DNA of 39,826 bases from positions 1-39,826 of IMG/VR virus record IMGVR_UViG_3300042922_001494; one strand, written 5' to 3'. The notes under the pieces are model-generated. The model was not told where the DNA came from, ran no database searches, and saw nothing but the letters and a program-made list of their open reading frames with translations. How positions within the stretch are numbered: the first letter of the stretch is position 1; every line of letters starts with the position of its first letter. The position numbers were made by a program, and so were the translations under genes. Source of the DNA: a virus. Shown piece after piece: positions 1 to 39,826 of this stretch.

Positions 1-1581
1 ATGTATAGTAAATCATTAGATGATGTAGTTAAACAATTCAATACTACACCGTTTTTATTTATTGGATCTGGAATTACTAGAAGATATTATAACTTACCCG
101 ATTGGAAGAGTCTGCTAGAAATCTTTGCAATTCGCATCAGCAATGATCCTTACGCCTATTCTTCTTATGAAAGTAGTGCAAAGGCTATGAATTGCGAAGT
201 TGGTCTATACCCTCAAATAGCAGAACTTATTGAACATGATTATAATAAATTATGGTTCTCTAATCCTGAAATAAGAAATCTAGATGTATACTATTCAGAT
301 ATGGTAAAAAGTGGGGTATCTCCATTCAAGGCTGAAATAGCCATGTACATAAAACACAATTCAAACATAGTAGAATACCATAAATCTGAAATTAAAAAGC
401 TACACGAAATTTCTAAAAAAAGCATATCTGGAGTTATTACAACAAACTATGACCTCTTCTTAGAAGATACGTTAGATGAATTTCACGAATATGTGGGGCA
501 AGAAGAGTTGATTTTCTCAGCAATACAAGGAATTGCTGAAATTTATAAAATTCATGGCTCGATAAATAATCCAAATAGCATTATTATAAATAAGATTGAT
601 TATACTTTGTTTGATGAAAAAAGCCCTTACTTAGCTGCGAAACTCATGACTATCTTTATGGAATACCCTATTGTTTTTTTAGGTTACTCGTTAAATGACT
701 CAAACATTCAAAAGATTATTTATTCAATTGTTAATTGCCTCTCCAAAGAAAACCTTGAAAAACTTCAAGAGCGCTTTGTTTTTGTAGAGTATGATGAACA
801 TTTTAAGGATGTCGAAATTTCTCCTCATTCTATGGTCATAGGTGATAAGATTTTGTATATGACAAAAATTCGTTGCAGTGATTTTAGCCTAATATATGAT
901 GCTATCAGTAAGAAAAAGTCTGAAATCCCAGTAAAATTGCTTAGAAAATTTAAGCAAGAATTGTATACTTATACTCTGAGCAACTCTCCTACCACTAATA
1001 TAAAAGTTGCCAGTATAGATGATAAAAGGCTGGATGATGATGAATTAGTATTAGCCATAGGAAGAATGTCTGAATTTGGTCTAAAGGGGCTAAGCGGATT
1101 AAGTGGTAGCGAATGGTATCGTAATGTAATACTTAATGATTTAGACTTCAATCCGGATGAATTACTTAAATATGCGTTCCCCAAGTTAAGAAAACAAAAC
1201 TCTAATAATCTACCATTTTTTAAATTTTTATATTATGCTAGAGAAAAGCATTTAGACGTATTAGAACTGGCTGAACAGACTACTTTTGATAAGATTATTA
1301 GTGATAGCATAAGAAATCATCGAAATATATTAGGGTCATATACTTCAGTTAATGACATTTGGGAAAAAGAAAAGAATTTAAATAAAGCTACATATCTTAT
1401 TGCTCATTTAACACAGGAACAGATATGTGTAGACGATTTAGAAAAAATTCTGAACAAAATTTTTAGCAATAACAGAGATATTTTAGAAACAGAGACTCAA
1501 AACACTAAGACAAATATTCGTAGACTTATCAGAATATATGATTGTTTAAAATATAGGAATGTAGAAAAGTCCCTTGACTAA
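1..1581 (+). CDS. SIR2-like domain protein, candidate NAD-consuming phage-defence effector
   Basis: A 526-residue protein. The N-terminal ~260 residues carry the SIR2 signature in order: a GSGI nucleotide-binding loop (residues 22-25, normally GAG), TTNYD (147-151), KIHGS with the likely catalytic His185, and FLGYSLND (226-233). This arrangement is typical of the SIR2_2-like group found in bacterial defence proteins (DSR-type, ThsA, SIR2-HerA), which hydrolyse NAD+ rather than deacetylate proteins. Residues ~260-526 are helical-looking and unrecognised; in such proteins this half usually senses the phage. The gene is visibly more AT-rich than the adjacent late operon and points the opposite way, as expected of cargo ('moron') DNA at a prophage edge. 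Its promoter lies outside the window, so the start cannot be checked. The SIR2 fold is confident; the defence role is inference. Confidence 0.85.
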   Translation: MYSKSLDDVVKQFNTTPFLFIGSGITRRYYNLPDWKSLLEIFAIRISNDPYAYSSYESSAKAMNCEVGLYPQIAELIEHDYNKLWFSNPEIRNLDVYYSDMVKSGVSPFKAEIAMYIKHNSNIVEYHKSEIKKLHEISKKSISGVITTNYDLFLEDTLDEFHEYVGQEELIFSAIQGIAEIYKIHGSINNPNSIIINKIDYTLFDEKSPYLAAKLMTIFMEYPIVFLGYSLNDSNIQKIIYSIVNCLSKENLEKLQERFVFVEYDEHFKDVEISPHSMVIGDKILYMTKIRCSDFSLIYDAISKKKSEIPVKLLRKFKQELYTYTLSNSPTTNIKVASIDDKRLDDDELVLAIGRMSEFGLKGLSGLSGSEWYRNVILNDLDFNPDELLKYAFPKLRKQNSNNLPFFKFLYYAREKHLDVLELAEQTTFDKIISDSIRNHRNILGSYTSVNDIWEKEKNLNKATYLIAHLTQEQICVDDLEKILNKIFSNNRDILETETQNTKTNIRRLIRIYDCLKYRNVEKSLD

Positions 1582-12604: not shown

Positions 12605-13942
12605 TTAATCTGTAAGGGTTGCCGTGATATAAATCTTCTCTACGGCCGCTACTGGCTGGATTGCAAGTGTTATCACCACTGCATTGATTGCATCTCCCGC
12701 GCTTATAACCACATCATCTGCGACAAAGTTCTGAATACCACCGTTTGCCTGGATCTCATTTAAATACCCCACAATCCAAGCCTTAAGTAAACCTCTACCG
12801 TCAGCATTGTTCTGAATCTTACCTATGTAGTTCTGCGAAAAATTCTTATAGATATCATTTGCAATGGAATCCAGAGTTCGAATGACTTGATTCAGGCTGA
12901 AGGCCTCACCTTTGTCTGGAGTGTAAGTGGTTAAAGTGTTAATATCTGATACCACTTTAACGCTTCCAAACTCTTCAAAAAAAACAATCTGACCTTTGTC
13001 CAATGCTTCGTCCACTTCCGATGCGTTCAGACGAGGAGTAACATTCACCGCGTCCGGATACTGTGCATATACCAGGGATTCGCTGTAATTTGCCCCCGCT
13101 TCCGCTCCGCCAATCCACCAAGTTGTCTGCTGTGGAGTAAGGACGGTCCCGTCTGACAGAACAATCCCGTTTCTCACAGAAATAACTGCATCAGAATTAC
13201 TCTCAACGCCCGCCATAACAGCCTGACACTTCTTACCTAGATTGTCCCGCATCCGTTTAATGAAAGCCACATAAGCGGCCTGAACAGTGCTGTCCACTCC
13301 ATCATAGATCAGCACATTAAAGGTGTAAGGCTCCAAAACTGTCAGGAAAGTGGAATATGCTGCACTGCTTACAGTTCCGTCATTGCCTCCAGTTAAGGAA
13401 GTTCCTGCGCTGGCTGCTAAATTTCCAGTCCCTGAAAATACCACCCAATCATTACCTTTCAAGTCTGCAACCGTCTTTCCGATCTGAGTATGCTTTACGG
13501 CTCCATCAACAACGGTTTGTACTGTATAGCTTCCTTCGTTGTCAGGATCCGCAACAACAGCAATGGAAATATTATTTCCTCTTACGCCGTTATACTTTGC
13601 AGTAATCGTGAGCGGTGCAATGGTAGCGATTGCTTTTGCTGCCCCCGTAGAAGTTGGGCGATATAACATAACCTTTGCAGGCCCTTTAGTATGCCCGCTA
13701 CCTTTAAAAATCTCCCTCAAAAACAAGGCTTTGTCATTGGTAGAGTCGTATCCAATGAATGAAGTGAGATCGTCACCCACATTAATGGTCATGATCTCAT
13801 CCTCTGGCCCCCAGGACAACTGCTTGCAGATTGCAACCACTCCCCGATCTCCCACGCTGACAACCTGCGCCATGCTTGATTTTACATTAATGTAAACACC
13901 AGGCTGCTTTTTATTTTGACTGGTCCATGTTCCTCCGGACAT
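12605..13942 (-). CDS. Contractile tail sheath protein (XkdK-like)
   Basis: 445 residues. 'SGGTWTSQNKKQPGVYINV', 'TITAKYNGVRGNNISIAVV', 'WWIGGAEAGANYSESLVYAQYPDAVNV' and the C-terminal 'DKGEAFSLNQVIRTLDSIANDIYKNF..NYIGKIQNN..GR' (in parts) are typical of Firmicute phage tail sheath proteins. It forms the outer contractile tube, making the particle a myovirus. GGAGGGAG precedes ATG 13942, and the tube gene follows. Confidence 0.95.
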   Translation of the reverse strand: MSGGTWTSQNKKQPGVYINVKSSMAQVVSVGDRGVVAICKQLSWGPEDEIMTINVGDDLTSFIGYDSTNDKALFLREIFKGSGHTKGPAKVMLYRPTSTGAAKAIATIAPLTITAKYNGVRGNNISIAVVADPDNEGSYTVQTVVDGAVKHTQIGKTVADLKGNDWVVFSGTGNLAASAGTSLTGGNDGTVSSAAYSTFLTVLEPYTFNVLIYDGVDSTVQAAYVAFIKRMRDNLGKKCQAVMAGVESNSDAVISVRNGIVLSDGTVLTPQQTTWWIGGAEAGANYSESLVYAQYPDAVNVTPRLNASEVDEALDKGQIVFFEEFGSVKVVSDINTLTTYTPDKGEAFSLNQVIRTLDSIANDIYKNFSQNYIGKIQNNADGRGLLKAWIVGYLNEIQANGGIQNFVADDVVISAGDAINAVVITLAIQPVAAVEKIYITATLTD

Positions 13943-16214: not shown

Positions 16215-17255
16215 TTAAATTCCGTCGACATAGCGCATGATATTTTCATAAAACAGCTGTGTCTCGGAGATGTTTGCAAGGTATGCGGTATCATAGCAGA
16301 GGTTAGTGGCATTTGGCTGAGTCATGGCACGATTAAGCGGAGCCAGTTCATCCATTGCCAGGAAGCGTTCCGTGTTGATGTAAATAATCATTCGATCCGT
16401 ACCACCTGCACCGGCACCCTTACACCATGAAGTCGCTCCGATATAGAGATCAACTCCGTTTTGCTTCGAAACATTATTTTCCATAAGGAATGTAAGGATT
16501 GTTTTTTCTGCCAGATCAGAAACTCTGGTTGTTGCAAGGTAATTAAACTGATCATAAGGCATTAAAATCTGATTCGGAATTGCACTCCGATCATTCTCCG
16601 CTGCATTCCACACAGCAAGGATGGCGTCGTTAATATCCTGCAAGATCTGATTCGGTGTCTTACTCTTAAATGTTGTCATGCTTCCAGTTCCGGTGGATGC
16701 TGCGTTTGCAGTAGTTACGTTTGGATTGTTAATAAGTCCAGTAGATCCATACTTTTTAATACCCACGTAAGCATTGGCATCCATGTGCTTGTCATAGGTC
16801 ATACGGATTCCATCTCTTAATATGCTTTCATAACTCCGACCAGTCATGTTTCCACGCTGCATATCTACAAAACCAATTCTCATACCCACGGAAAAAATAT
16901 GAGTCTTAAAAAGCTCCTTGTCAAAATTAGCCTGAACCATTGGAATTCCATTGGCTCCACCTGCATGAACCGGACCATCTTCACTGCCTCCGGCGACTCC
17001 ATATTCCACGTTCATAGCAGACACATATTCAGCCCAGCCCCCACCTACACGAACAGGAAGATCACGGCCATAAGTAAAACTGGTAAGCGGCTGCCTGATC
17101 ACATTATCTCTCTTTTCCAGTTCCGACTGCAGGAAAGCTCCGCCATTTGCAATCACCGCCGCGTCCATGGCCTGGAATTTTTGGGGAGCCGCAGCCCCGG
17201 TTGATGGAGCACTAACCACGCCTGCATCGAATGTTCCCATATTCTGATATTTCAT
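16215..17255 (-). CDS. Major capsid protein (DUF2184/YqbE-like, HK97 fold)
   Basis: 346 residues. 'FLQSELEKRDNVIRQPLTSFTYGRDLPVRVGGGWAEYVSAMNVEYG', 'FSVGMRIGFVDMQRGNMTGRSYESILRDGIRMTYDKHMDANAYVG' and 'RMIIYINTERFLAMDELAPLNRA' (fragments) are typical of DUF2184 capsid proteins. It builds the icosahedral shell. No long scaffolding delta-domain is seen at its N-terminus; the scaffold is probably supplied by the upstream protease-linked protein. AAGGAGGG precedes ATG 17255. Confidence 0.9.
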   Translation of the reverse strand: MKYQNMGTFDAGVVSAPSTGAAAPQKFQAMDAAVIANGGAFLQSELEKRDNVIRQPLTSFTYGRDLPVRVGGGWAEYVSAMNVEYGVAGGSEDGPVHAGGANGIPMVQANFDKELFKTHIFSVGMRIGFVDMQRGNMTGRSYESILRDGIRMTYDKHMDANAYVGIKKYGSTGLINNPNVTTANAASTGTGSMTTFKSKTPNQILQDINDAILAVWNAAENDRSAIPNQILMPYDQFNYLATTRVSDLAEKTILTFLMENNVSKQNGVDLYIGATSWCKGAGAGGTDRMIIYINTERFLAMDELAPLNRAMTQPNATNLCYDTAYLANISETQLFYENIMRYVDGI

Positions 17256-17268
17256 TAAATTGCCCTCC

Positions 17269-17778
17269 TTATGCTCTGTTGCAGGATAAGATCCTGATTT
17301 CCGCTACACCATTGGCATCCTTTGTTCCATGCCATTCGCAATTAGTCAATGCGACTGTTTTCCCTGTATCCGCTGAAGCTTCAAAACCGCCAACAATGCC
17401 CGTTGGAATGGTTTCGTTCGCTACAGTCCGGATATAAACCTTTCCACCAAGTTTAGGGCTACCCACATTACAAAGCACATTAATGCATCCACGCTTAAAT
17501 GTGCTGGTTGCATCTCCTGGCTCATACTGCCCTGCGGACTGGGACAGATAAGACGTTGCGGACTTAAACTCCCTGGAAGCCACGCCTACAAAGTCTACGG
17601 CAGTGTTGCTGGCTCCAAAGGCTACTACGTTGCTGTCGTTGTCATAGACCAGAGGAGTCCCGAACTTTACAGCATCCTCACCACCAAGAGGGTGAGTGTC
17701 AATAATCATATCCGGCTGTCTGGAATAATCTCCTGCGTATCCATGTGTCATGCTTTTACCTATTACCTGTCCTCTCAT
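17269..17778 (-). CDS. Capsid decoration (cement) protein
   Basis: 169 residues, glycine- and beta-rich: 'MTHGYAGDYSRQPDMIIDTHPL', 'FGTPLVYDNDSNVVAFGA', 'FVGVASREFKSATSYLSQSAGQYEPGDATSTFKRGCINVL' (fragments). This matches the structural cement protein family (Gp24-type) encoded between scaffold/protease and major capsid genes. It would stabilise the expanded capsid. ATG 17778 overlaps the preceding TAA by one base. Confidence 0.85.
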   Translation of the reverse strand: MRGQVIGKSMTHGYAGDYSRQPDMIIDTHPLGGEDAVKFGTPLVYDNDSNVVAFGASNTAVDFVGVASREFKSATSYLSQSAGQYEPGDATSTFKRGCINVLCNVGSPKLGGKVYIRTVANETIPTGIVGGFEASADTGKTVALTNCEWHGTKDANGVAEIRILSCNRA

Positions 17779-18959
17779 TATTTATTACCTCCATTTTTGT
17801 GTGGGTTCATTGCATCATAAGCAGACTGACAAGCGTCCAAGTCTATGCCTGGCTGTTTATCTGCCAGTCTGGCTGCATTCTTCTGGGTGGCCGCTGCAAT
17901 CTTTGCGATATCGCTCACGGTATTCTTATCTGACAAGCAGGCGATCAAGGAATCCGTAACAGCCTTTTTGTCGGCTGAATCCTTAATTCCTGCAATCACC
18001 GGCCGAAGCTGTTTTATTACTTCTGCCATGACAGCCTTATCCGCTGTACCGGTAGCCTTATCAAGTTCCTCGGCAGGGATCACCTTCGCTTCTGCGCTGG
18101 GCGCTGGTTCCTCGGTTTCTCCCGTAAGGGACTTAATCAGACCGTCCAGGGGATCCTGATCGACTTCCGGTTCCTTTTTAGCAGACATTAATTCTATGAG
18201 CTTATCTAATTTAGCCTCAACGCTGGAAGAGTCTTTTACTTCTTCCTTTGCAGGAACTGCAGGCTCTGCCTTTTTCGGCTCCTCCTCTCCAAGAGCATCT
18301 GCAGCATCCGCGGCCATGGATTCCAGTTCCTCCGGTGAGGCATCCTTTACTGCTTTTGCAAACATCTTAAAAAATAAACTGTTCTTTTTCATGTTTCCTT
18401 TCCTTTCTGGCTGGTGAGCCTCTATCTTCTTTTCTGAATCTAAAATCGCAACATTCTTTCCCGCACGTCCCCGTGTTACCACGGCTACATGATTCCCGCG
18501 AATATCGTGTTGCGAATAGGTTCCATCTCCATTGTCAGAACAACTGCAATCATACCCGCAGCTGATCTCTCGCTTTCCTCCCTGCACTGCCTGGATCAAT
18601 TCTTCATCCTGAACATGTAAATCCGCAATCAAATATCCTTCCCACTCTCCACTACCTTTGCGGACGTTTTCGGCACAACCCCTGGAATACTGCCTGTAGG
18701 TTTCTGGAGTTATCAGTTCTGGAGGGTGTTCATTGGTCACAGGCTTTCCCTCGAAACTGGATATAGCGGCTTCTGAGAATACTTCTTCCGGGGATCGCAG
18801 CACTTTAACCATTTTGGAAGAGCTCCCCGCAGGGTTTAATTCACTTTCCAGGTAGTCCATGCTACCAGTCCGGGCAATGGGGACATTTCGACAAATTAAA
18901 AAGCCCTCGCCAGTTTCTATCTGGTTCGGGCTTATGGTATATCCATAATATGCAAGCAT
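17778..18959 (-). CDS. DUF2213 prohead protease fused to a scaffold-like region
   Basis: 393 residues from ATG 18959, which has AGAAAGGAAATGG upstream; a longer frame from 19013 runs through the palindrome and is unlikely. Residues ~1-165 are DUF2213 (ETGEGFLICRNVPIARTGSMDYLE, SSFEGKPVTNEHPPELI, GYLIADLHVQDEELI, REISCGYDCSC), a prohead serine protease-like domain. Residues ~175-390 are acidic, lysine- and alanine-rich and low complexity (EEPKKAEPAVPAKEEVKD), fitting an internal scaffold removed during maturation. A short palindrome and a terminator separate it from the MuF/immunity genes. Confidence 0.85.
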   Translation of the reverse strand: MLAYYGYTISPNQIETGEGFLICRNVPIARTGSMDYLESELNPAGSSSKMVKVLRSPEEVFSEAAISSFEGKPVTNEHPPELITPETYRQYSRGCAENVRKGSGEWEGYLIADLHVQDEELIQAVQGGKREISCGYDCSCSDNGDGTYSQHDIRGNHVAVVTRGRAGKNVAILDSEKKIEAHQPERKGNMKKNSLFFKMFAKAVKDASPEELESMAADAADALGEEEPKKAEPAVPAKEEVKDSSSVEAKLDKLIELMSAKKEPEVDQDPLDGLIKSLTGETEEPAPSAEAKVIPAEELDKATGTADKAVMAEVIKQLRPVIAGIKDSADKKAVTDSLIACLSDKNTVSDIAKIAAATQKNAARLADKQPGIDLDACQSAYDAMNPHKNGGNK

Positions 18960-18970
18960 TCCATTTCCTT

Positions 18971-18994
18971 TCTGTTGCGACCGTCGCAACGGTT
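18971..18994. repeat. 24-bp repeat copy B with palindromic core GTTGCGACCGTCGCAAC
   Basis: The core at 18974-18990 and flanks are identical over 24 bp to the reverse complement of copy A at 2712-2735. It lies between the terminator that follows the putative immunity gene and the ribosome site of the prohead protease gene. The two copies bracket the capsid-to-holin part of the late operon. Confidence 0.85.
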
Positions 18995-19002
18995 TAGGGT
19001 AC

Positions 19003-19038
19003 AAAAATACCACCAGCCATTTTCTGACCGATGGTATT
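19003..19038 (-). terminator. Intrinsic terminator after the MuF/immunity cassette
   Basis: On the minus strand a 14-bp stem (19025-19038 with 19006-19019, several G.U pairs, 5-nt loop) leads into a U5 run (19003-19007). It overlaps the stop codon of the 72-residue gene, so it is placed to separate the toxin-immunity pair from the capsid genes. Confidence 0.72.
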
Positions 19039-19255
19039 AGATCGTTAACATATCCTTTATTTTCTCTGCTTCTTCCTCTGTTACCTCATCATACTCCCAA
19101 TCTTCACCGATAAAAATACAGCATTGCTCCGGAGCTGACTTCCACTTCTTTGCGTCCTTATTATAACGTTCAAACTCACCGGAAATAAACCGATACAACC
19201 GCCTTGCCTTTTTCTTATCTTTTTCATAGCCATATACAAAATAAAAATCTTCCAT
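19037..19255 (-). CDS. Small acidic protein, candidate immunity protein for the MuF toxin domain
   Basis: 72 residues, glutamate-rich and acidic towards the C-terminus (EDWEYDEVTEEEAEKIKDML), with a strong AGGAGGTCTC site before ATG 19255. It starts 8 bp after the MuF gene and ends at a terminator, so the two form a unit. No family is recognised. Polymorphic toxins are usually followed directly by a small specific immunity gene, and MuF toxins of temperate phages follow this rule; the immunity role here is inferred from position, size and acidity. Its sequence 'FYFVYGYEKDKKKARRLYRF' suggests a small alpha/beta fold. Confidence 0.75.
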   Translation of the reverse strand: MEDFYFVYGYEKDKKKARRLYRFISGEFERYNKDAKKWKSAPEQCCIFIGEDWEYDEVTEEEAEKIKDMLTI

Positions 19256-19263
19256 GAGACCTC

Positions 19264-20964
19264 CTATTTTATCTGATCAATATTTAAAGGTATCTCCAAA
19301 TGAGATGATAGCTCAAACATTTTATTGTTAAGAACATTACGTCTCTCAGCGCTTGTAGTGTCTTTGCGATGTTCTTCGTATAAGCCATGCATTACCTTCC
19401 CGTCTTTTAGCTTATAGCTTTCGGGAGTATGGAATTGCACCTCAAACCGCTGCCCTTTCGGTGATTCAAAAACACAATTCACACCTTTATATGCAGACCT
19501 TTTATCAAGCCAGGTGTTTTTGACTTTTACAGTCTTATACCCTATGTCGGTAATATGCTTTGATACATTTTTATAGGAATCTACCAAAGACAGGGCATTG
19601 CTCTGATAAGTGTATCGGATGACATCGTTCGTTGAGTTAATGGTATCTTTAATAATCTGCGAATCCAGGCTATGCTCGCTATCGGTACCTACTTTTCGCA
19701 GGAAAGAATCCTTTGATTTTATCCGGCTCTCCAACCCTACCAGTGTCACTCCGGTATCGTTGGATATCTGTTTCAAATCGGCAGTGATAGCTGGCTCTTT
19801 AAGGATTATTTTATTGTAAGCGTTGGTCTTGCGGTATAGTGCTTGTGCGCTCTTCCAACTCTCATCACCATTATACTTTAATTCCCGGAACTTTTCAAAG
19901 CTTTTCGGAACATCATTTCCAAGTATCGCCCGGTATCGCTCATGCTGTTTATAATCACTAAGCAACTTCTGCCGGTTCCTGATCTTTTCCTTATAGGCCG
20001 CGATCTGCTTCTTACTTCTGGGATCCACCGTAACAGGATTCTTATTGAAACTTGAAAAGTCCTTATCCTTTTGGATCTGAGCATCACTCTTGCCGATGGT
20101 TGTATATTTGACCAGGGCATGAAGACAGTTCGGGTGTATATTCAAGTATGTATTACTTAAGTCATTGCTACCGCTGGGATCAATCTTTCCAAAAGCGGAA
20201 GCCAGTGGAGGATAATCTGGATTTGTGCCGGACCGGCTGTAAACCCTTCCTTCCAATGGTGCGCAGATAGGGCAGGTGCTTCCGATTTTGACAATCCTAT
20301 ATAAATCATGGTCCGGATCCGCTGTTAATATGGCAGATACTTCTGCCTGTCTGGCCGTCGCCCTGGTTGCCATGTTGCAATAATCCTGCAAGCTCCACTT
20401 GCGCCCTGACTTGTCAACAAAGGCTGTAATCCCTTCTGTTGCACCATTTTCGGCAGTGGCCATTATTGACTGCAATTCCTTTTTCATACTGGCTGCTGCT
20501 TTCCCTGAACCGTATCCTGCAGCTTTTGCTTCGGCTACTGACTTTAAAGCCGCTTTCCTTATTTCGTCTGCCTCTCGTCTTCCAATTTGGAATGATTCTT
20601 CAATGTTTTTCTGTGCCGTGACAGAAGCCTCCACGATATCTCCCAATAGATTGTTGGATAGCTGCTGAACTACTCCAAGCTGTGAGGCAGTAAGCCCTGC
20701 AGCATTCGCATAGCCGTTGGCTGCTGCTTCAGATTTGTAAAAGATCTTCTCCACCATGGCAGGAACATAGCTCCAGCTTTCGTCCACCATCTCCTGCAGG
20801 ATCTTCTGAGTGCGGTTTAAAGCGGCTATCTCTGCATAGTCCACATATCCCTGGCTACGCTTTCGGTTTATTTCTGCGATCAATCGTTGTTCCGTTTTCA
20901 GGAATAACACCCGGAGATAAGTTGTCTCATCCTTTCCTCCTGGCGGTCTTATCATCTGCGGCAT
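19264..20964 (-). CDS. MuF-type minor head protein with C-terminal RelA/SpoT-like alarmone synthetase domain
   Basis: 566 residues. Residues ~1-300 are the SPP1 gp7/Mu gpF head morphogenesis domain, with CPICAPLEGRVY (231-242) and HPNC (277-280) as its hallmarks. Residues ~385-520 fit an RSH/SAS (p)ppGpp synthetase: R414-x-K416-xxx-S420-xxx-K424 in SRIKSKDSFLRK, D447VIR450, Y492KGVN496 (guanine-stacking Tyr) and the catalytic E508VQ510 in FEVQFHTPE. There is no HD hydrolase domain, as in toxic small alarmone synthetases. MuF proteins enter the capsid few per virion, so the toxin may be packaged and delivered or act in the producing cell (inference). TAATG overlap with portal; the immunity candidate follows. 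Substrate (ppGpp, ppApp or tRNA CCA end) cannot be told. Confidence 0.87.
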   Translation of the reverse strand: MPQMIRPPGGKDETTYLRVLFLKTEQRLIAEINRKRSQGYVDYAEIAALNRTQKILQEMVDESWSYVPAMVEKIFYKSEAAANGYANAAGLTASQLGVVQQLSNNLLGDIVEASVTAQKNIEESFQIGRREADEIRKAALKSVAEAKAAGYGSGKAAASMKKELQSIMATAENGATEGITAFVDKSGRKWSLQDYCNMATRATARQAEVSAILTADPDHDLYRIVKIGSTCPICAPLEGRVYSRSGTNPDYPPLASAFGKIDPSGSNDLSNTYLNIHPNCLHALVKYTTIGKSDAQIQKDKDFSSFNKNPVTVDPRSKKQIAAYKEKIRNRQKLLSDYKQHERYRAILGNDVPKSFEKFRELKYNGDESWKSAQALYRKTNAYNKIILKEPAITADLKQISNDTGVTLVGLESRIKSKDSFLRKVGTDSEHSLDSQIIKDTINSTNDVIRYTYQSNALSLVDSYKNVSKHITDIGYKTVKVKNTWLDKRSAYKGVNCVFESPKGQRFEVQFHTPESYKLKDGKVMHGLYEEHRKDTTSAERRNVLNNKMFELSSHLEIPLNIDQIK

Positions 20965-22397
20965 TATTCCTCAGCCTCCTCAAATGCTCCCGGAGCTGAC
21001 AGCCCCGCAAAAGGATCATTCATTGCTTTGTAATCCGAGTAGGTTTTTCCCTTGGCGGCTTTGATTGCTTCATCCGAAATGGTGCTGTACATGCCGGTTT
21101 CATCAGATAGCGCTTTAAGCTCTTTCTGTGCGGTTGCGGCGTCGATCAGATCGCTTTGATACACTGCCATAACGGACTGCGTTTTCTTTTCTGCAATGTC
21201 TGCGATCTCGCTGGAATCCGGCGTCTGGAGTGGGGGGAAGTCTATGTCCAGATCGTCAGGAATTGCTCCCCATACTGACAGCAACATAACCGGAAGGATC
21301 TTTTCAAGCAATGGCCGGAACTGATTCTCCCTCAGACCGTCGATGTAATCGTAATAGTTGTTCATATCACTTTCGCCCGTGGAATTCATACCAGCAGGTG
21401 ACCTGCCGAACAGCTTAGTCACTGGGGTTCTGGCGGCTCCTGCAACGTCCATCATCACCCGGTCATAAACATCTGCCAGACCGGTAAAGGTGTATTGGGT
21501 GTTGTGCATGACGTCACCCTTGTTCACTAAACGCATCCCAAAGTTACTCTCCAGTACACTCTGAGCCTGCAAGGTCTGCCAGAATTGGCGCTGTGCTTTT
21601 CCATTATTTACTGCAAGAAGCTGATCCAATGAATCCGTTTCCATGTAGTTTATGTTTGCCCGGAAGGTCAACGCGGCAATGTTGGAAGACACATTGTCTC
21701 GCTTAACCACCTCACTGTATATGGCTTCGATTTCCGATTCTCCCCAGTACTGCTCTGCGATTCTTTCGTTGTAGGGGAGCTCCCTCCCCGTGAATCGTAT
21801 CACCCGGCTGTGATGAACCGTTGACACCAGAGTGCCGCTTTCTTCGTCCCGGATCGTGTAATAAGCAGGGAGCCCAAAGTCAGGATCAGACGGATCTGTA
21901 ACAATCCCCATTTCCGGATAGACACCACTCCACCGGTCAAGGATCTGTAATCCAAGGAATGTGCCAGGGAGAATCAAGTCATAGTCCAGCGGCTTTGACA
22001 GATCGTCCTGTCCCTTTACCATGATGATCGCGGCTGCTCCTCCGTAAAGCCTGCCCCAATACATTCCTTCAAGGATAGATTTTCTTAGGTGCACCTTTCT
22101 TTCAAGGCGTTGCAGGGAGTCGATCCGCTCCGGTGCTACATTGCTCTTAACGGTGTACCATTTACGGATCATGTCCTCCGGTATGGTGGAAATGATGTTC
22201 TGCACAATCCAGTTATCCCGGTAAAGGCTGGTGAGTAACTGGTAATTCTGTGTCATGCGGGTAAGCGGGTACTGTGTTGCCTGAAGAAGATCCTGTGTCC
22301 CGTACCCCAGTCTTGCGATCGGATTTGAAAAAGCATCATTTACCTGGATCTTATTATCCGCCCGTATCTGCGGACGGTTTCGTTTTGGTTTTGCCAT
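20964..22397 (-). CDS. Portal protein (DUF1073 family)
   Basis: 477 residues from ATG 22397; an in-frame GTG at 22403 lies inside the ribosome site AGGAGGTG and is unlikely. 'YPLTRMTQNYQLLTSLYRDNWIVQNIIS..PEDM.RKWY', 'RVIRFTGRELPYNERI', and 'VTKLFGRSPAGMNSTGESDMNNYYDYIDGLRENQ' (fragments) are diagnostic of DUF1073 portals. It forms the dodecameric DNA gate. Some databases label this family with the name of the anti-CBASS protein Acb1 because a few members carry that domain; I see no Acb1 catalytic HxT pair here, so portal is the right call. Confidence 0.92.
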   Translation of the reverse strand: MAKPKRNRPQIRADNKIQVNDAFSNPIARLGYGTQDLLQATQYPLTRMTQNYQLLTSLYRDNWIVQNIISTIPEDMIRKWYTVKSNVAPERIDSLQRLERKVHLRKSILEGMYWGRLYGGAAAIIMVKGQDDLSKPLDYDLILPGTFLGLQILDRWSGVYPEMGIVTDPSDPDFGLPAYYTIRDEESGTLVSTVHHSRVIRFTGRELPYNERIAEQYWGESEIEAIYSEVVKRDNVSSNIAALTFRANINYMETDSLDQLLAVNNGKAQRQFWQTLQAQSVLESNFGMRLVNKGDVMHNTQYTFTGLADVYDRVMMDVAGAARTPVTKLFGRSPAGMNSTGESDMNNYYDYIDGLRENQFRPLLEKILPVMLLSVWGAIPDDLDIDFPPLQTPDSSEIADIAEKKTQSVMAVYQSDLIDAATAQKELKALSDETGMYSTISDEAIKAAKGKTYSDYKAMNDPFAGLSAPGAFEEAEE

Positions 22398-22406
22398 AAG
22401 CACCTC

Positions 22407-22553
22407 CTATGCTATCCTTGTCGTTGACACTGCCATAATGAACGCCATAGTGCACCACAATATTGTTCCGCAAATATCTTTCTTTTTCCAACACCACCAA
22501 GCTGCCGCCAAGTCAACAAACATTGCAACCGTATTCAAACAAAATAGTATCAT
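22407..22553 (-). CDS. Small membrane protein between terL and portal
   Basis: A 48-residue frame: starts MILFCLNTVAMFVDL and contains CGTILWCTMAFIMAV. It has two short hydrophobic segments around a KKKD turn, tryptophan- and cysteine-rich. ATG 22553 overlaps the terL stop as ATGA, and GGAGGAGG lies 8-9 bases upstream inside terL, so it is very probably translated. The function is unknown; a membrane role in a packaging operon is unusual. Confidence 0.68.
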   Translation of the reverse strand: MILFCLNTVAMFVDLAAAWWCWKKKDICGTILWCTMAFIMAVSTTRIA

Positions 22554-23899
22554 TGAACATTCCTCCTCCATTTTGGTAACTTTGTCATACAGTAATACCG
22601 AAGCGCATCAGGACCGTGATCTAGCTGTTTGACTGGCTTCTCGTCCCCGTTCTGCGCTGCCTTATCGTCCCACACATAGGAACGTATCTCAGTTATCAGA
22701 CCTTCGCAGCGTTTATGCACCTTGATCTTTCCTGATTGAAAAAGAGCCGCAACCACACGGATTCCGTCAAGAACTTCGTTGTCAGCAGGTTTTACGATAT
22801 ACCCCCGGCTCTTCAACTCTGCTATGAAGCTGGCTGCCGATGGATCCGAAACAACGTCGCACTGCAAATCAGGATTGTCTCCCATGAAGGTAACCATATC
22901 ATCACCATACTGGCTGTCTGTTTTCTGCCCTTCCTTTTCCACCCGGCTGTCCCACCGGTACTCCCGATCTACCCAGATGGTGTCTCCATCATCGTAAATA
23001 TCCAGGAATACACATGGGTTCGTAGTTCCGTAATCTAATGAAATCGTGCGAATGGAGAGATACTCCAATCCCTTGGGACGCGTCTCATCATCGTAGACGT
23101 TGGAGGACTTAGTAAACATGGTATATATAAGCCCTTCGGCAACCGCCCACAATCCCTCGATATAACGTAAAAAAAAGACACCTGCGTACAAACTGCGGTA
23201 TCTCTTCTTGATCGCTTCGTCCAGGGAAAGATTATCTTCCATGGTGAAGTGCAAATATAAGATGTTCTTAACTTCCTTGTCTGAAGCCCTTAACTCTTCG
23301 GCTTTCTTTCTGCCCAGATATCCTATACACTTATTGATCCAACCGACCTTGAACCAATGCATCGGACCTGCAGGGTTGCAGTTAAACCAAAACTTTGAAC
23401 CCGTGATAGAACAACGTCCGGTTGCCTGGTTGACAAACGATTCCGGCATCAGGGCAACTTCATCAAAAAAAGCCCCGGCAGCTGTAATACCTTGCACCAG
23501 CTCCTGGGAACCTTCATCCTTTCCACCGAAGATATGAAAATAGTTAGTAACTTTACCCTTTGTTACTTCCAGCATGTTAGGCGTTTCACCAGACAAATGA
23601 TGAATACAGTGATACCCTCTGCTTCGTAGCATCATCTTTAAATTGGTAAGCACGTTACGCTGAAACGAACTGATTGTTTTACCAGCCATGATAAAGTTCT
23701 GTCCATTGAAAGAGCTCATGGCCCAAAACACATATGACAAAGACATGGAAACCGTCTTCCCTGATCGAATCGCACCATCAGCGATAATTCCGTCCATATC
23801 CTTAACTGGAGAATTCTTCGTCCACCAGTTCAATACCATTCTCTGCTTACGGGAAAACGGTTGAAACTTAAATATCTGTTTCCTCATCCTCCTGCTCAT
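22550..23899 (-). CDS. terL: Terminase large subunit
   Basis: 449 residues. Walker A is GAIRSGKT (residues 42-49), Walker B AGAFFDEV (~141-148), and the C-terminal RNase H-like nuclease includes SLDYGTTNP and the DPSAAS acidic motif. It is of the XtmB/Terminase_3 type. It cuts concatemeric DNA and powers packaging. The start overlaps terS by 32 bp if ATG 23899 is used; ATG 23887 is also possible. Confidence 0.95.
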   Translation of the reverse strand: MSRRMRKQIFKFQPFSRKQRMVLNWWTKNSPVKDMDGIIADGAIRSGKTVSMSLSYVFWAMSSFNGQNFIMAGKTISSFQRNVLTNLKMMLRSRGYHCIHHLSGETPNMLEVTKGKVTNYFHIFGGKDEGSQELVQGITAAGAFFDEVALMPESFVNQATGRCSITGSKFWFNCNPAGPMHWFKVGWINKCIGYLGRKKAEELRASDKEVKNILYLHFTMEDNLSLDEAIKKRYRSLYAGVFFLRYIEGLWAVAEGLIYTMFTKSSNVYDDETRPKGLEYLSIRTISLDYGTTNPCVFLDIYDDGDTIWVDREYRWDSRVEKEGQKTDSQYGDDMVTFMGDNPDLQCDVVSDPSAASFIAELKSRGYIVKPADNEVLDGIRVVAALFQSGKIKVHKRCEGLITEIRSYVWDDKAAQNGDEKPVKQLDHGPDALRYYCMTKLPKWRRNVQ

Positions 23900-24555: not shown

Positions 24556-24622
24556 TCGGAACACCCGGATTCGAACCGGGATCTTCTCTCTGCAGAGTGC
24601 TCTGCCATTGAGCTATGTTCCG
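24556..24622 (-). tRNA. tRNA-like element with truncated anticodon arm (probably not decoding)
   Basis: On the minus strand it has a perfect 7-bp acceptor stem (CGGAACA/TGTTCCG), TA linker, 4-bp D stem GCTC/GAGC with an AATGGCA loop, and a perfect T arm CCCGG-TTCGAAT-CCGGG, then discriminator A with no encoded CCA. Only 17 nt lie between position 26 and the T stem, where 21-22 are needed. They can form a 4-bp CTCT/AGAG hairpin with a 4-nt GCAG loop, so there is no normal 7-nt anticodon loop and no identity can be assigned. All other arms are intact, so it should still fold and perhaps be processed. It may be a decoy or tRNA mimic. Confidence 0.8.
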
Positions 24623-36950: not shown

Positions 36951-37117
36951 TTGACTTTTTTTAGAGAATAATCTAATATAAGAGTGTCCAGCAATTATAC
37001 GAGACTATTCTCTAAGATAGGTCTTTTGCATTTAGGTGATTCTCTAAATGCTTAAGTTCATTATATAGAGTTGTCTCTATTTTGTCAAGCCATTATTTTA
37101 GTTTTTTCTCTAAAAAG
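36951..37117. promoter_or_regulatory. Lysis-lysogeny control region with five TTCTCTAA operators
   Basis: Divergent intergenic region. The plus-strand promoter TTGACT (36951) - 17 bp - TAATAT (36974) carries operator TTTAGAGAATA (36960-36970) in its spacer. The minus-strand -10 TATAAT (36994-36999) has operator ATTCTCTAA (37007-37015) just upstream, in its spacer. Further boxes: ATTCTCTAAA 37039-37048, palindrome ATAGAG-TTGT-CTCTAT 37065-37080, and TTCTCTAAAAA 37107-37117 next to the repressor start. A second plus-strand promoter (TTGTCT 37071, TATTTT 37094) is possible. The arrangement allows repressor and Cro to compete for sites. Confidence 0.8.
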
Positions 37118-37130
37118 TAAGAGGTGCATA

Positions 37131-37553
37131 ATGAACAGTGTTGATATAATTAAAAAGGCATGCAAAGAACAAAAAATCCCTATCTCTCGACTTGAACGAG
37201 ATCTAGGATATGGAAACGGGTACATTGGTCAGCTTCGCAAGGGAACAATACCGTCAGATCGAGCTATTGAAATTGCTGATTACTTAAATATAGGTTTGCA
37301 ATATCTCATGACGGGGGAAGAGAGTTTAAAAGCAATAGAAAGACCTCTTACCCGTAAAGATGAGCGCGATATCGAAAAAATTCTTGATTCAACAAGGGAT
37401 ATGCTTCTCTCCCAAGAAGGCTTAATGTTTGACGGAGATCCAGCGTCACCAGAAGCAATCGAATCAATTTTATCGGCGATGCAAGTTGGTATGGAAATGG
37501 CAAAAAGAAAGAACAAAGAGATCTTTACTCCTAAAAAGTACAAAAAGGACTGA
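37131..37553 (+). CDS. CI/ImmR-like XRE repressor
   Basis: 140 residues from ATG 37131 (AAGAGGTG upstream); an upstream in-frame extension crosses the operators and is not credible. Residues 1-60 are an XRE helix-turn-helix (IPISRLERDLGYGNGYIGQL, PSDRAIEIADYLNIGLQYLMTGE). The C-terminal part is a helical segment without a LexA/S24 autocleavage domain, so RecA-driven self-cleavage is unlikely; inactivation by the adjacent ImmA-like protease is expected, as in ICEBs1 and phi105. It should repress the Cro-side promoter. Confidence 0.88.
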   Translation: MNSVDIIKKACKEQKIPISRLERDLGYGNGYIGQLRKGTIPSDRAIEIADYLNIGLQYLMTGEESLKAIERPLTRKDERDIEKILDSTRDMLLSQEGLMFDGDPASPEAIESILSAMQVGMEMAKRKNKEIFTPKKYKKD

Positions 37554-38704: not shown

Positions 38705-39826
38705 ATGCCAGTTTACAAAGACGAAGAGCGAGGTACATACTATTGCAAATTTTACTATACTGATTATGCAGGAAAAAGACAGCAGAAGAAAAAAAGGGGC
38801 TTTAAGCTCCAGAGGGATGCAAAAGAATGGGAAAGATCGTTTTTATCTCAAAACAGCTCTAGTCTTTTAATGACATTTAAAGATTTCACTGAAATATATT
38901 TTGAAGATATGGAAAATCGTTTAAAACAATCCACAATTATTTGTAAACAAAATATTGTTATCAACAAATTAATGCCATTTTTCGGAGATATCCCTATGGA
39001 TAAGATAACACCGCAGGTCATAAGAACTTGGCAAAATGAGGTATTATCTCACAAAGACGAAAAAGACAATCCCTTTAGTCCAATCTACCTACGTGCTATG
39101 GATAAACAGCTGAGGTGTATATTTAATTATGCAGTTACCTATTATGGTCTGAAAGCAAGCCCTTGCAAAAAAGCCGGATCTATCGGAAGCTCTGACAATG
39201 GAAAAGAAATGTCATTCTGGACAAAAGAAGAATTTGATAAATTTATAAACTCTGTTGACGATCCAGGATTAAACGAAGCGTTCACAGTCCTATATTACAC
39301 AGGTATGCGAGTTGGGGAAATGCTTGCTCTTACATGGGCGGATATAGATCTTACAAATCGTATTATCAACATAACTAAAACATACCACCGCTTTGGATCA
39401 GACGATATAATAACCACTCCTAAAACACGGCGCAGCGTAAGAAAGGTTCCTATCCCTTTATTTTTGTGTGATAGCCTTCTTAGGTATAAGCTAAGGCACT
39501 ATAATCCAGACGAAAAAGACAGGGCCTTTCAATATACCAAAGTAATTATGGGCAGGAAATTACGGGCATACTGCGCGCTGGCCGGAGTCAAGCGCATCCG
39601 AGTTCATGACTTAAGACATAGCCATGTGTCCCTTTTAATTAATCTGGATTTCAAGCCCCTACTAATTGCCGAACGAATTGGAGACTCTGTTGATATGGTA
39701 AACAATGTTTATGGCCACCTCTATCCGAACGAGCACACCGCTCTGGTGGATAAATTAGAAGAATTGAATAATAGTACCAAAATAGTACCAAAGCAAAAAA
39801 ATAAGCCATCAAAACCCCTTATTTAA
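38705..39826 (+). CDS. int: Tyrosine-type site-specific integrase
   Basis: 373 residues. The N-terminal ~55 residues are an arm-binding AP2-like domain (GTYYCKFYYTDYAGKRQQKKKRGF), then a SAM-like core-binding domain (60-150), then the catalytic domain with Arg202 (TGMRVGE), Lys240 (TTPKTRRS), His301-x-x-Arg304 (VHDLRH) and nucleophile Tyr336 (NNVYGHLYP). The usual LGH histidine is Asp327 (IGDS), a known variation. It integrates and, with an excisionase, excises the prophage. GAAAGGAAATG precedes ATG 38705. Confidence 0.95.
   Translation: MPVYKDEERGTYYCKFYYTDYAGKRQQKKKRGFKLQRDAKEWERSFLSQNSSSLLMTFKDFTEIYFEDMENRLKQSTIICKQNIVINKLMPFFGDIPMDKITPQVIRTWQNEVLSHKDEKDNPFSPIYLRAMDKQLRCIFNYAVTYYGLKASPCKKAGSIGSSDNGKEMSFWTKEEFDKFINSVDDPGLNEAFTVLYYTGMRVGEMLALTWADIDLTNRIINITKTYHRFGSDDIITTPKTRRSVRKVPIPLFLCDSLLRYKLRHYNPDEKDRAFQYTKVIMGRKLRAYCALAGVKRIRVHDLRHSHVSLLINLDFKPLLIAERIGDSVDMVNNVYGHLYPNEHTALVDKLEELNNSTKIVPKQKNKPSKPLI
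39771..39792. repeat. Tandem ATAGTACCAAA repeat at the end of int
   Basis: Two exact 11-bp copies (39771-39781 and 39782-39792) lie back-to-back in the last int codons. Direct repeats close to the int end are often arm-type integrase binding sites of attP. They fit an attachment site just beyond the window, but no core can be identified here. Confidence 0.5.

What the first reader, a model, noticed from the sequence alone, without database searches (positions are those of the whole stretch)
19264..20964. Phage head protein fused to a RelA/SpoT-type alarmone synthetase-like toxin domain
The C-terminal third of the MuF minor head protein contains every synthetase landmark in the right order: R414xK416xxxS420xxxK424, D447xxR450, Y492KG, and the E508xQ510 catalytic pair. 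MuF-linked polymorphic toxins of temperate phages are known as a class, and toxic small alarmone synthetases are known as free toxin-antitoxin pairs. A structural head protein carrying this fold would mean the toxin could ride in the virion and be injected, or act as a check on phage production. The substrate could be (p)ppGpp, ppApp or the tRNA CCA end.
Basis: partly seen in the sequence, partly recalled or inferred. Interest (0 to 1): 0.88.

Follow-up and report, generated by a model that had tools for sequence, protein, structure and literature searches.

The report
Phage head protein carrying alarmone-synthetase toxin
A virus that lives in a gut-type Clostridia bacterium has a head protein whose tail end is an enzyme predicted to poison bacteria by making a toxic signalling nucleotide, with a small antidote gene beside it; this is a well-supported new example of a toxin family (Apk2) already described in other phages.

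Summary
The ORF is on the minus strand (19264-20964, 566 aa). Residues ~51-287 are a MuF-type minor head domain (PF06152, just downstream of the portal). Residues ~387-566 are a divergent RelA/SpoT-type synthetase. PF04607 does not score it, but a family profile matches solved alarmone synthetases (SaEAS/8vx3 E 2e-48; Tas1/6ox6 E 5e-7), and a pLDDT-96 model has SaEAS as best fold match (TM 0.78), then Tas1, RelP and CapRel. The catalytic residues are near-invariant in 177 relatives. Related phages with the same N-terminus (89% DNA identity) carry another C-terminus, and toxin domain plus IapK gene are exchanged as one cassette (19040-19804). The fusion itself is not new. RelA-like MuF toxins were listed in 2017, and Apk2 (MuF + (p)ppApp synthetase + IapK + Aph1) was characterised in 2023-2025. 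This is an Apk2-like member from a temperate Lacrimispora myophage, in a subclade that lacks the Aph1 hydrolase. Most likely product: (p)ppApp (inferred). Virion delivery is untested. Side-finding: a free-standing, catalytically intact relative sits in 24 of 25 genomes of the genus, often with its immunity gene lost or fused.

The parts
19264..20964 (-). MuF-synthetase fusion gene (566 aa); ATG overlaps the portal stop codon (TAATG)
20104..20814 (-). MuF2 / Phage_min_cap2 head domain (residues ~51-287)
   Evidence: PF06152 E 6e-14; 45 of 48 full-length relatives carry PF04233 or PF06152
19267..19806 (-). synthetase (Apk2tox-like) domain, residues ~387-566; D447 at 19624-19626, R450 at 19615-19617, E508 at 19441-19443, Q510 at 19435-19437
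   Evidence: PDB profile hits, AF2 model and Foldseek, alignment with phage Apk2 domains
19037..19255 (-). 72-aa IapK-family immunity gene, 8 nt after the toxin stop codon, with a strong ribosome-binding site (AGGAGG)
   Evidence: IapK HMM seeded on published-phage IapKs reaches it at iteration 2 (E 2.6e-15), final 1.9e-21; 32% to Javan119 IapK; AF2 pLDDT 90
19040..19804 (-). exchangeable cassette: toxin domain plus immunity gene replaced as a unit in related phages
   Evidence: DNA identity 89% up to 19805 and 84-85% from 19039 against L018/L020, none between
20964..22403 (-). portal protein (Phage_portal_3)
   Evidence: PF06381 E 1e-110
22550..23899 (-). terminase large subunit
   Evidence: PF03237 E 1e-7
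17778..19013 (-). DUF2213 protein directly downstream of the cassette; conserved in phages with and without the toxin
   Evidence: PF09979 E 1e-48
16215..17255 (-). major capsid protein
   Evidence: PF09950 E 3e-60
12605..13942 (-). contractile tail sheath (myophage)
   Evidence: PF04984 E 6e-29
37071..37553 (+). CI-type repressor (HTH)
   Evidence: PF01381/PF07022 weak hits
38705..39826 (+). tyrosine integrase: temperate phage
   Evidence: PF14659 E 1e-18, PF00589 E 1e-14

Best explanation
The gene is an Apk2-like MuF polymorphic toxin of a temperate myophage. Its MuF half is a minor head protein made with the portal. Its C-terminal domain is a monofunctional alarmone synthetase that moves pyrophosphate from ATP to the 3'-OH of a purine nucleotide, most likely ATP/ADP, giving (p)ppApp, draining ATP and stopping growth. 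The 72-aa gene after it encodes an IapK immunity protein that binds the synthetase, probably at the acceptor site, and protects the phage-producing cell and perhaps the lysogen. A few copies are presumably packaged through the MuF domain and ejected with the DNA into the next cell. Shown here: domain identity, fold, conserved active site, toxin-immunity pairing, exchange of the pair as a cassette, temperate phage context. Inferred from relatives: product, toxicity, IapK mechanism. Untested: packaging and injection.
For: MuF domain after the portal. Synthetase domain by sequence and fold. 35-41% identity over the toxin domain to phage head proteins of Streptococcus, Pasteurella and Mannheimia, the hosts of characterised Apk2 proteins. 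Apk signatures RYT, GxN and xH present. IapK-family gene directly downstream in 155 of 184 toxin loci and in none of the MuF loci with another or no C-terminus. IapK fused to an Aph1-like HD domain in L037, L054, L060 and L065. Cassette exchange, with toxin-domain dS far above MuF dS against L008. Tree: window inside a 100-row clade with the Apk2 phages, SaEAS outside, SH-aLRT 91. Purifying selection on MuF, toxin and IapK (dN/dS about 0.1 or less where dS is not saturated, up to 0.14 for IapK).
Against: No enzyme assay. The motif signature does not fix the acceptor: SaEAS has RYT/GLN/FH and prefers guanylates, and the window shares its F511, where S. pneumoniae Apk2 has Y. No Aph1 gene at the locus or in any of the 23 rows of its subclade. 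IapK has no solved structural relative detectable. Nothing shows that the protein is in virions.
Confidence: 0.85

Rival explanations
1. The domain mainly makes (p)ppGpp or a mixture rather than (p)ppApp, so the phage would inject a stringent-response trigger.
For: The closest solved structure, SaEAS, has the same RYT/GxN/FH signature and prefers guanylate acceptors. The ppApp hydrolase gene aph1 is missing in this subclade.
Against: The tree places it with (p)ppApp-specific Apk2 phages and not with SaEAS. Close sister loci carry Aph1-like genes (L145, L147, L148, L151, L160). Its partner is IapK-type, the kind paired with ppApp makers.
Confidence: 0.2
2. The domain pyrophosphorylates the tRNA CCA end (FaRel2/CapRel-like) and stops translation.
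For: CapRel is among the fold matches; the SYNTH fold is shared.
Against: CapRel is a weaker match (TM 0.50) than SaEAS (0.78). tRNA-targeting toxSAS are neutralised by pseudo-zinc-finger antitoxins, and the partner here is an IapK.
Confidence: 0.05
3. The C-terminal domain is not delivered; it only acts inside the producing cell (for example a late timing switch or an abortive checkpoint), with IapK as its regulator.
For: The gene lies in the late head operon, translationally coupled to the portal. Delivery has not been shown for any MuF alarmone synthetase in the papers read.
Against: Domain exchange on a constant head domain is typical of delivered polymorphic toxins (PMC5576092). The ejection protein gp44 of phage 80alpha, encoded between portal and capsid, enters the host (PMC7290940).
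Confidence: 0.2
4. Decayed remnant without activity.
For: Polymorphic toxin modules often decay; one relative (L040) has the catalytic D changed to G.
Against: Intact ORF, all catalytic residues kept, dN/dS 0.10 for the toxin domain against L007.
Confidence: 0.03

Closest known systems
Apk2 (MuF adenosine 3'-pyrophosphokinase) of S. pneumoniae, M. haemolytica, P. multocida and B. caccae prophages (PMC12226406)
   Same: MuF N-terminus next to the portal, homologous synthetase C-terminus (~35-41% identity), same catalytic motifs, IapK gene directly downstream
   Different: Myophage of Lacrimispora with a PF06152 (MuF2) head domain; no Aph1 gene; F511 instead of Y in the syn4 motif compared with S. 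pneumoniae Apk2; activity not assayed
MuF polymorphic toxins (Jamet 2017, PMC5576092; Bxa, PMC11699363)
   Same: Variable C-terminal toxin on a conserved MuF domain, temperate phage of a Firmicute, small ORF after it
   Different: None of kind; RelA-like MuF toxins were already listed there
SaEAS exported alarmone synthetase (8vx3; PMC12691689)
   Same: Best solved match by sequence and fold, same active-site residues
   Different: SaEAS has a Sec signal peptide, no MuF, no immunity gene; it lies outside the window's clade
Tas1/Apk1 (6ox6), T6SS effector
   Same: Fold and active site; toxin-immunity pair
   Different: PAAR N-terminus, T6SS delivery, only remote sequence similarity (E 4.5e-7)
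FaRel2, PhRel2, CapRel
   Same: SYNTH fold
   Different: tRNA substrate and pseudo-zinc-finger antitoxin; not a head protein

Membership tests
Apk2 | N-terminal MuF domain in the phage head module | tested here: met
   PF06152 E 6e-14, portal upstream
Apk2 | C-terminal SYNTH domain homologous to Apk2tox | tested here: met
   35-41% identity to Apk2 phages; tree
Apk2 | Intact syn motifs with RYT / GxN / (Y)H signature | tested here: met
   RYT 450-452, GVN 494-496, F511-H512; F instead of Y at 511
Apk2 | Exclusive adenosine 3'-pyrophosphokinase activity | not testable with these tools
   needs enzymology
Apk2 | iapK immunity gene adjacent | tested here: met
   19037-19255, HMM E 1.9e-21
Apk2 | aph1 hydrolase gene adjacent (usual companion, not part of the published definition) | tested here: not met
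   no Aph1 profile hit in the window; also absent in all 23 rows of the subclade
MuF polymorphic toxins | Conserved N-terminus with exchangeable C-terminal domain | tested here: met
MuF polymorphic toxins | Temperate phage | tested here: met
   integrase and repressor
MuF polymorphic toxins | Carried in the virion and delivered | not testable with these tools
   needs virion proteomics
tRNA-targeting toxSAS (FaRel2/CapRel) | Pseudo-zinc-finger antitoxin partner | tested here: not met
   partner is IapK-type; criterion from PMC11782079
Pfam RelA_SpoT (PF04607) | Match above the Pfam cut-off | tested here: not met
   no hit for the window protein; 20 of 79 relatives hit weakly; fold match is clear
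SaEAS-type exported synthetase | Sec signal peptide and no immunity gene | tested here: not met
   N-terminus is MuF and an IapK gene follows

The most novel reading that the evidence does not exclude
The same synthetase lineage has been domesticated on the chromosome of the host genus. A free-standing ~210-220 aa copy with all catalytic residues and its own ribosome-binding site is present in 24 of 25 Lacrimispora-type genomes, including the window's own. It evolves under purifying selection (dN/dS ~0.1-0.15), and its iapK is intact in only 10 of 24; it is absent in 10 and merged or partly merged in frame with the synthetase in 4. A phage-toxin alarmone synthetase may thus have become a housekeeping or defence enzyme that no longer needs its inhibitor.
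Probability: 0.45. Interest if true: 0.62.

Novelty: new member of a known kind. Interest (0 to 1): 0.4.

Why it matters
It extends Apk2-type head-borne alarmone toxins to temperate myophages of Lacrimispora and related Clostridia. It gives a clean natural example in which toxin domain and immunity gene move together between otherwise near-identical phages. The subclade that relies on IapK alone, without Aph1, and the host chromosome that keeps a relative of the toxin without its antidote, make it testable whether such toxins are delivered with phage DNA, whether IapK alone is enough, and how a toxic synthetase becomes harmless.

Tried and rejected
hmmscan with Pfam, PADLOC and PHROGs gave no direct synthetase call for the window protein; NCBIfam matched the XopAD effector C-terminus. 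The IapK profile and model found no PDB relative, so a structural link to Tis1 could not be shown. An Aph1 partner was sought in the window and own genome: none at the locus; only Rel and a 198-aa HD protein matched elsewhere. The free copy in the own genome was first suspected to be a remnant; its conserved ribosome-binding site and dN/dS rejected that. The PNAS 2023 Apk2/Aph1 paper was not held, so Aph1 specificity residues could not be checked. The query carried one wrong first letter (D for S), outside the matched stretch.

Full report
WHAT IS THERE. The finding's ORF is real: 19264-20964, minus strand, 566 aa. Its ATG overlaps the portal stop codon (TAATG). Upstream lie the portal (PF06381) and terminase; the N-terminal half matches Phage_min_cap2/MuF2 PF06152 at E 6e-14. 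The surroundings are a temperate myophage: capsid, sheath, tape measure, baseplate J, amidase, RecT, repressor and integrase. The window lies in an 82%-complete draft genome of the genus Lacrimispora, inferred from contigs of the same-genus relatives that match named Lacrimispora records by length (e.g. G003:C3, 521,294 bases = NZ_PTJA01000003.1).

THE C-TERMINAL DOMAIN. D447 aligns with D121 of SaEAS, which was mutated to A to inactivate the crystallised enzyme. A profile of 79 relatives finds 8vx3 at 2e-48 and the (p)ppApp synthetase Tas1 at 4.5e-7. AF2 gives pLDDT 96, and Foldseek ranks SaEAS (TM 0.78), Tas1, RelP, CapRel, RelQ and Rel. PF04607 does not score the window protein and scores only 20 of 79 relatives weakly, so the domain is a divergent RelA/SpoT fold. 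In 177 relatives the catalytic positions are almost invariant; part of this is biased by the scan patterns, but relatives found without those patterns keep them too.

THE IMMUNITY GENE. Eight bases after the stop codon, behind AGGAGG, lies a 72-aa acidic ORF (19037-19255). An HMM seeded only with the small proteins that follow apk2-type genes in the Streptococcus, Pasteurella, Mannheimia and Aggregatibacter phages reaches it at the second iteration (E 2.6e-15). At convergence it hits directly downstream of 155 of 184 synthetase loci and in none of the MuF loci that lack the synthetase domain. In four loci the IapK is fused to an HD domain, which joins the two known immunity functions in one chain. 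The window has no Aph1.

CASSETTE EXCHANGE. Phages L018 and L020 share 89% DNA identity with the window up to 19805 and 84-85% from 19039 on, and nothing in between; there the C-terminus is another domain and the iapK gene is gone. L010-L013 carry a toxin domain of the same family with an 82-aa IapK of another subtype; homology again resumes at the end of the iapK gene. Against L008 the MuF part has dS 0.65 while the toxin domain is saturated, so the two halves have different histories. L028 is a bare MuF without extension.

WHICH FAMILY. Phage relatives over the toxin domain are minor head proteins of Streptococcus, Pasteurella, Mannheimia and Aggregatibacter/Haemophilus phages at 35-41% identity. 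These include the groups in which Apk2 was characterised: toxic in E. coli, exclusive pppApp synthesis from ATP, neutralised by IapK and Aph1 (PMC12226406). RelA-like MuF toxins were already listed in 2017 (PMC5576092), and 39 SPP1/MuF-domain exported synthetases in 2025 (PMC12691689). In the tree the window sits in a 23-row subclade (SH-aLRT 99) without Aph1, within a 100-row clade that holds the Apk2 phages and scattered Aph1-like genes; SaEAS falls outside. Hence 'Apk2-like, new member of a known kind'. The published definition needs adenosine 3'-pyrophosphokinase activity, which is untested here.

MECHANISM. Shown: fusion, fold, active site, immunity pairing, cassette exchange, selection. 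Inferred: (p)ppApp as product (about 70%). The RYT/GxN/FH signature is shared with SaEAS, which prefers guanylates, so the motifs alone do not decide. The tree position, nearby Aph1-bearing sisters, and the rule that Tis1/IapK-type inhibitors go with metabolism-targeting synthetases while pseudo-zinc-finger antitoxins go with tRNA-targeting ones (PMC11782079) favour (p)ppApp. Packaging and ejection rest on analogy: gp44 of phage 80alpha, a minor capsid protein encoded between portal and capsid, is an ejection protein (PMC7290940). How a silent lysogen would express an iapK that sits in the late operon is open. A promoter-like TTGAAA-17-TATAAT lies just upstream of the cassette (19898-19870), with a TATAAT box kept in 20 of 22 relatives against ~43% expected from codon use; the sequences are related, so this is only a hint.

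SIDE-FINDING. The own genome holds a second, free-standing copy (G000:C222, L002/L236) followed by its own iapK. Such a copy is in 24 of 25 genomes of the genus, while the MuF-fused form is in five. All 24 keep the catalytic residues and a ribosome-binding site, with median dN/dS 0.10-0.15. The iapK is intact in 10 (one of these, the own copy, runs off the contig end), absent in 10 and wholly or partly merged in frame with the synthetase in 4. This may be the more unusual observation.

Noticed in passing
L002/L236 and L213-L235 (G000:C222 and 23 same-genus genomes): Free-standing ~207-222 aa relative of the phage toxin domain (up to 260 aa with fusions), near-core in the genus, catalytic residues 24/24, purifying selection, iapK intact in 10, missing in 10, merged in frame in 4.
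   Followed up: partly
window 19870-19898 (-): Promoter-like TTGAAA-N17-TATAAT inside the MuF linker just upstream of the exchangeable cassette; TATAAT codons kept in 20 of 22 relatives. Could serve immunity-gene expression in a lysogen, or be coincidence of the conserved KYN residues.
   Followed up: partly
L037, L054, L060, L065: IapK fused to an Aph1-like HD hydrolase domain: a two-function immunity protein.
   Followed up: partly
window 22398-22548: ~150-bp stretch between terminase and portal, absent in L008/L018/L020 but present in L007; appears to hold a ~48-codon ORF for a small hydrophobic peptide.
   Followed up: no
window 1-1581 (+): SIR2-domain protein strongly matching PADLOC candidate defence family PDC-S25 (E 4.7e-152) at the edge of the prophage.
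   Followed up: no
window 24556-24622 (-): Rfam tRNA match (53.6 bits) upstream of the terminase genes that ARAGORN did not report.
   Followed up: no
L040 (Pasteurella phage Pmp4): Natural variant of an Apk2 domain with the catalytic D changed to G, though IapK and Aph1 are kept.
   Followed up: no
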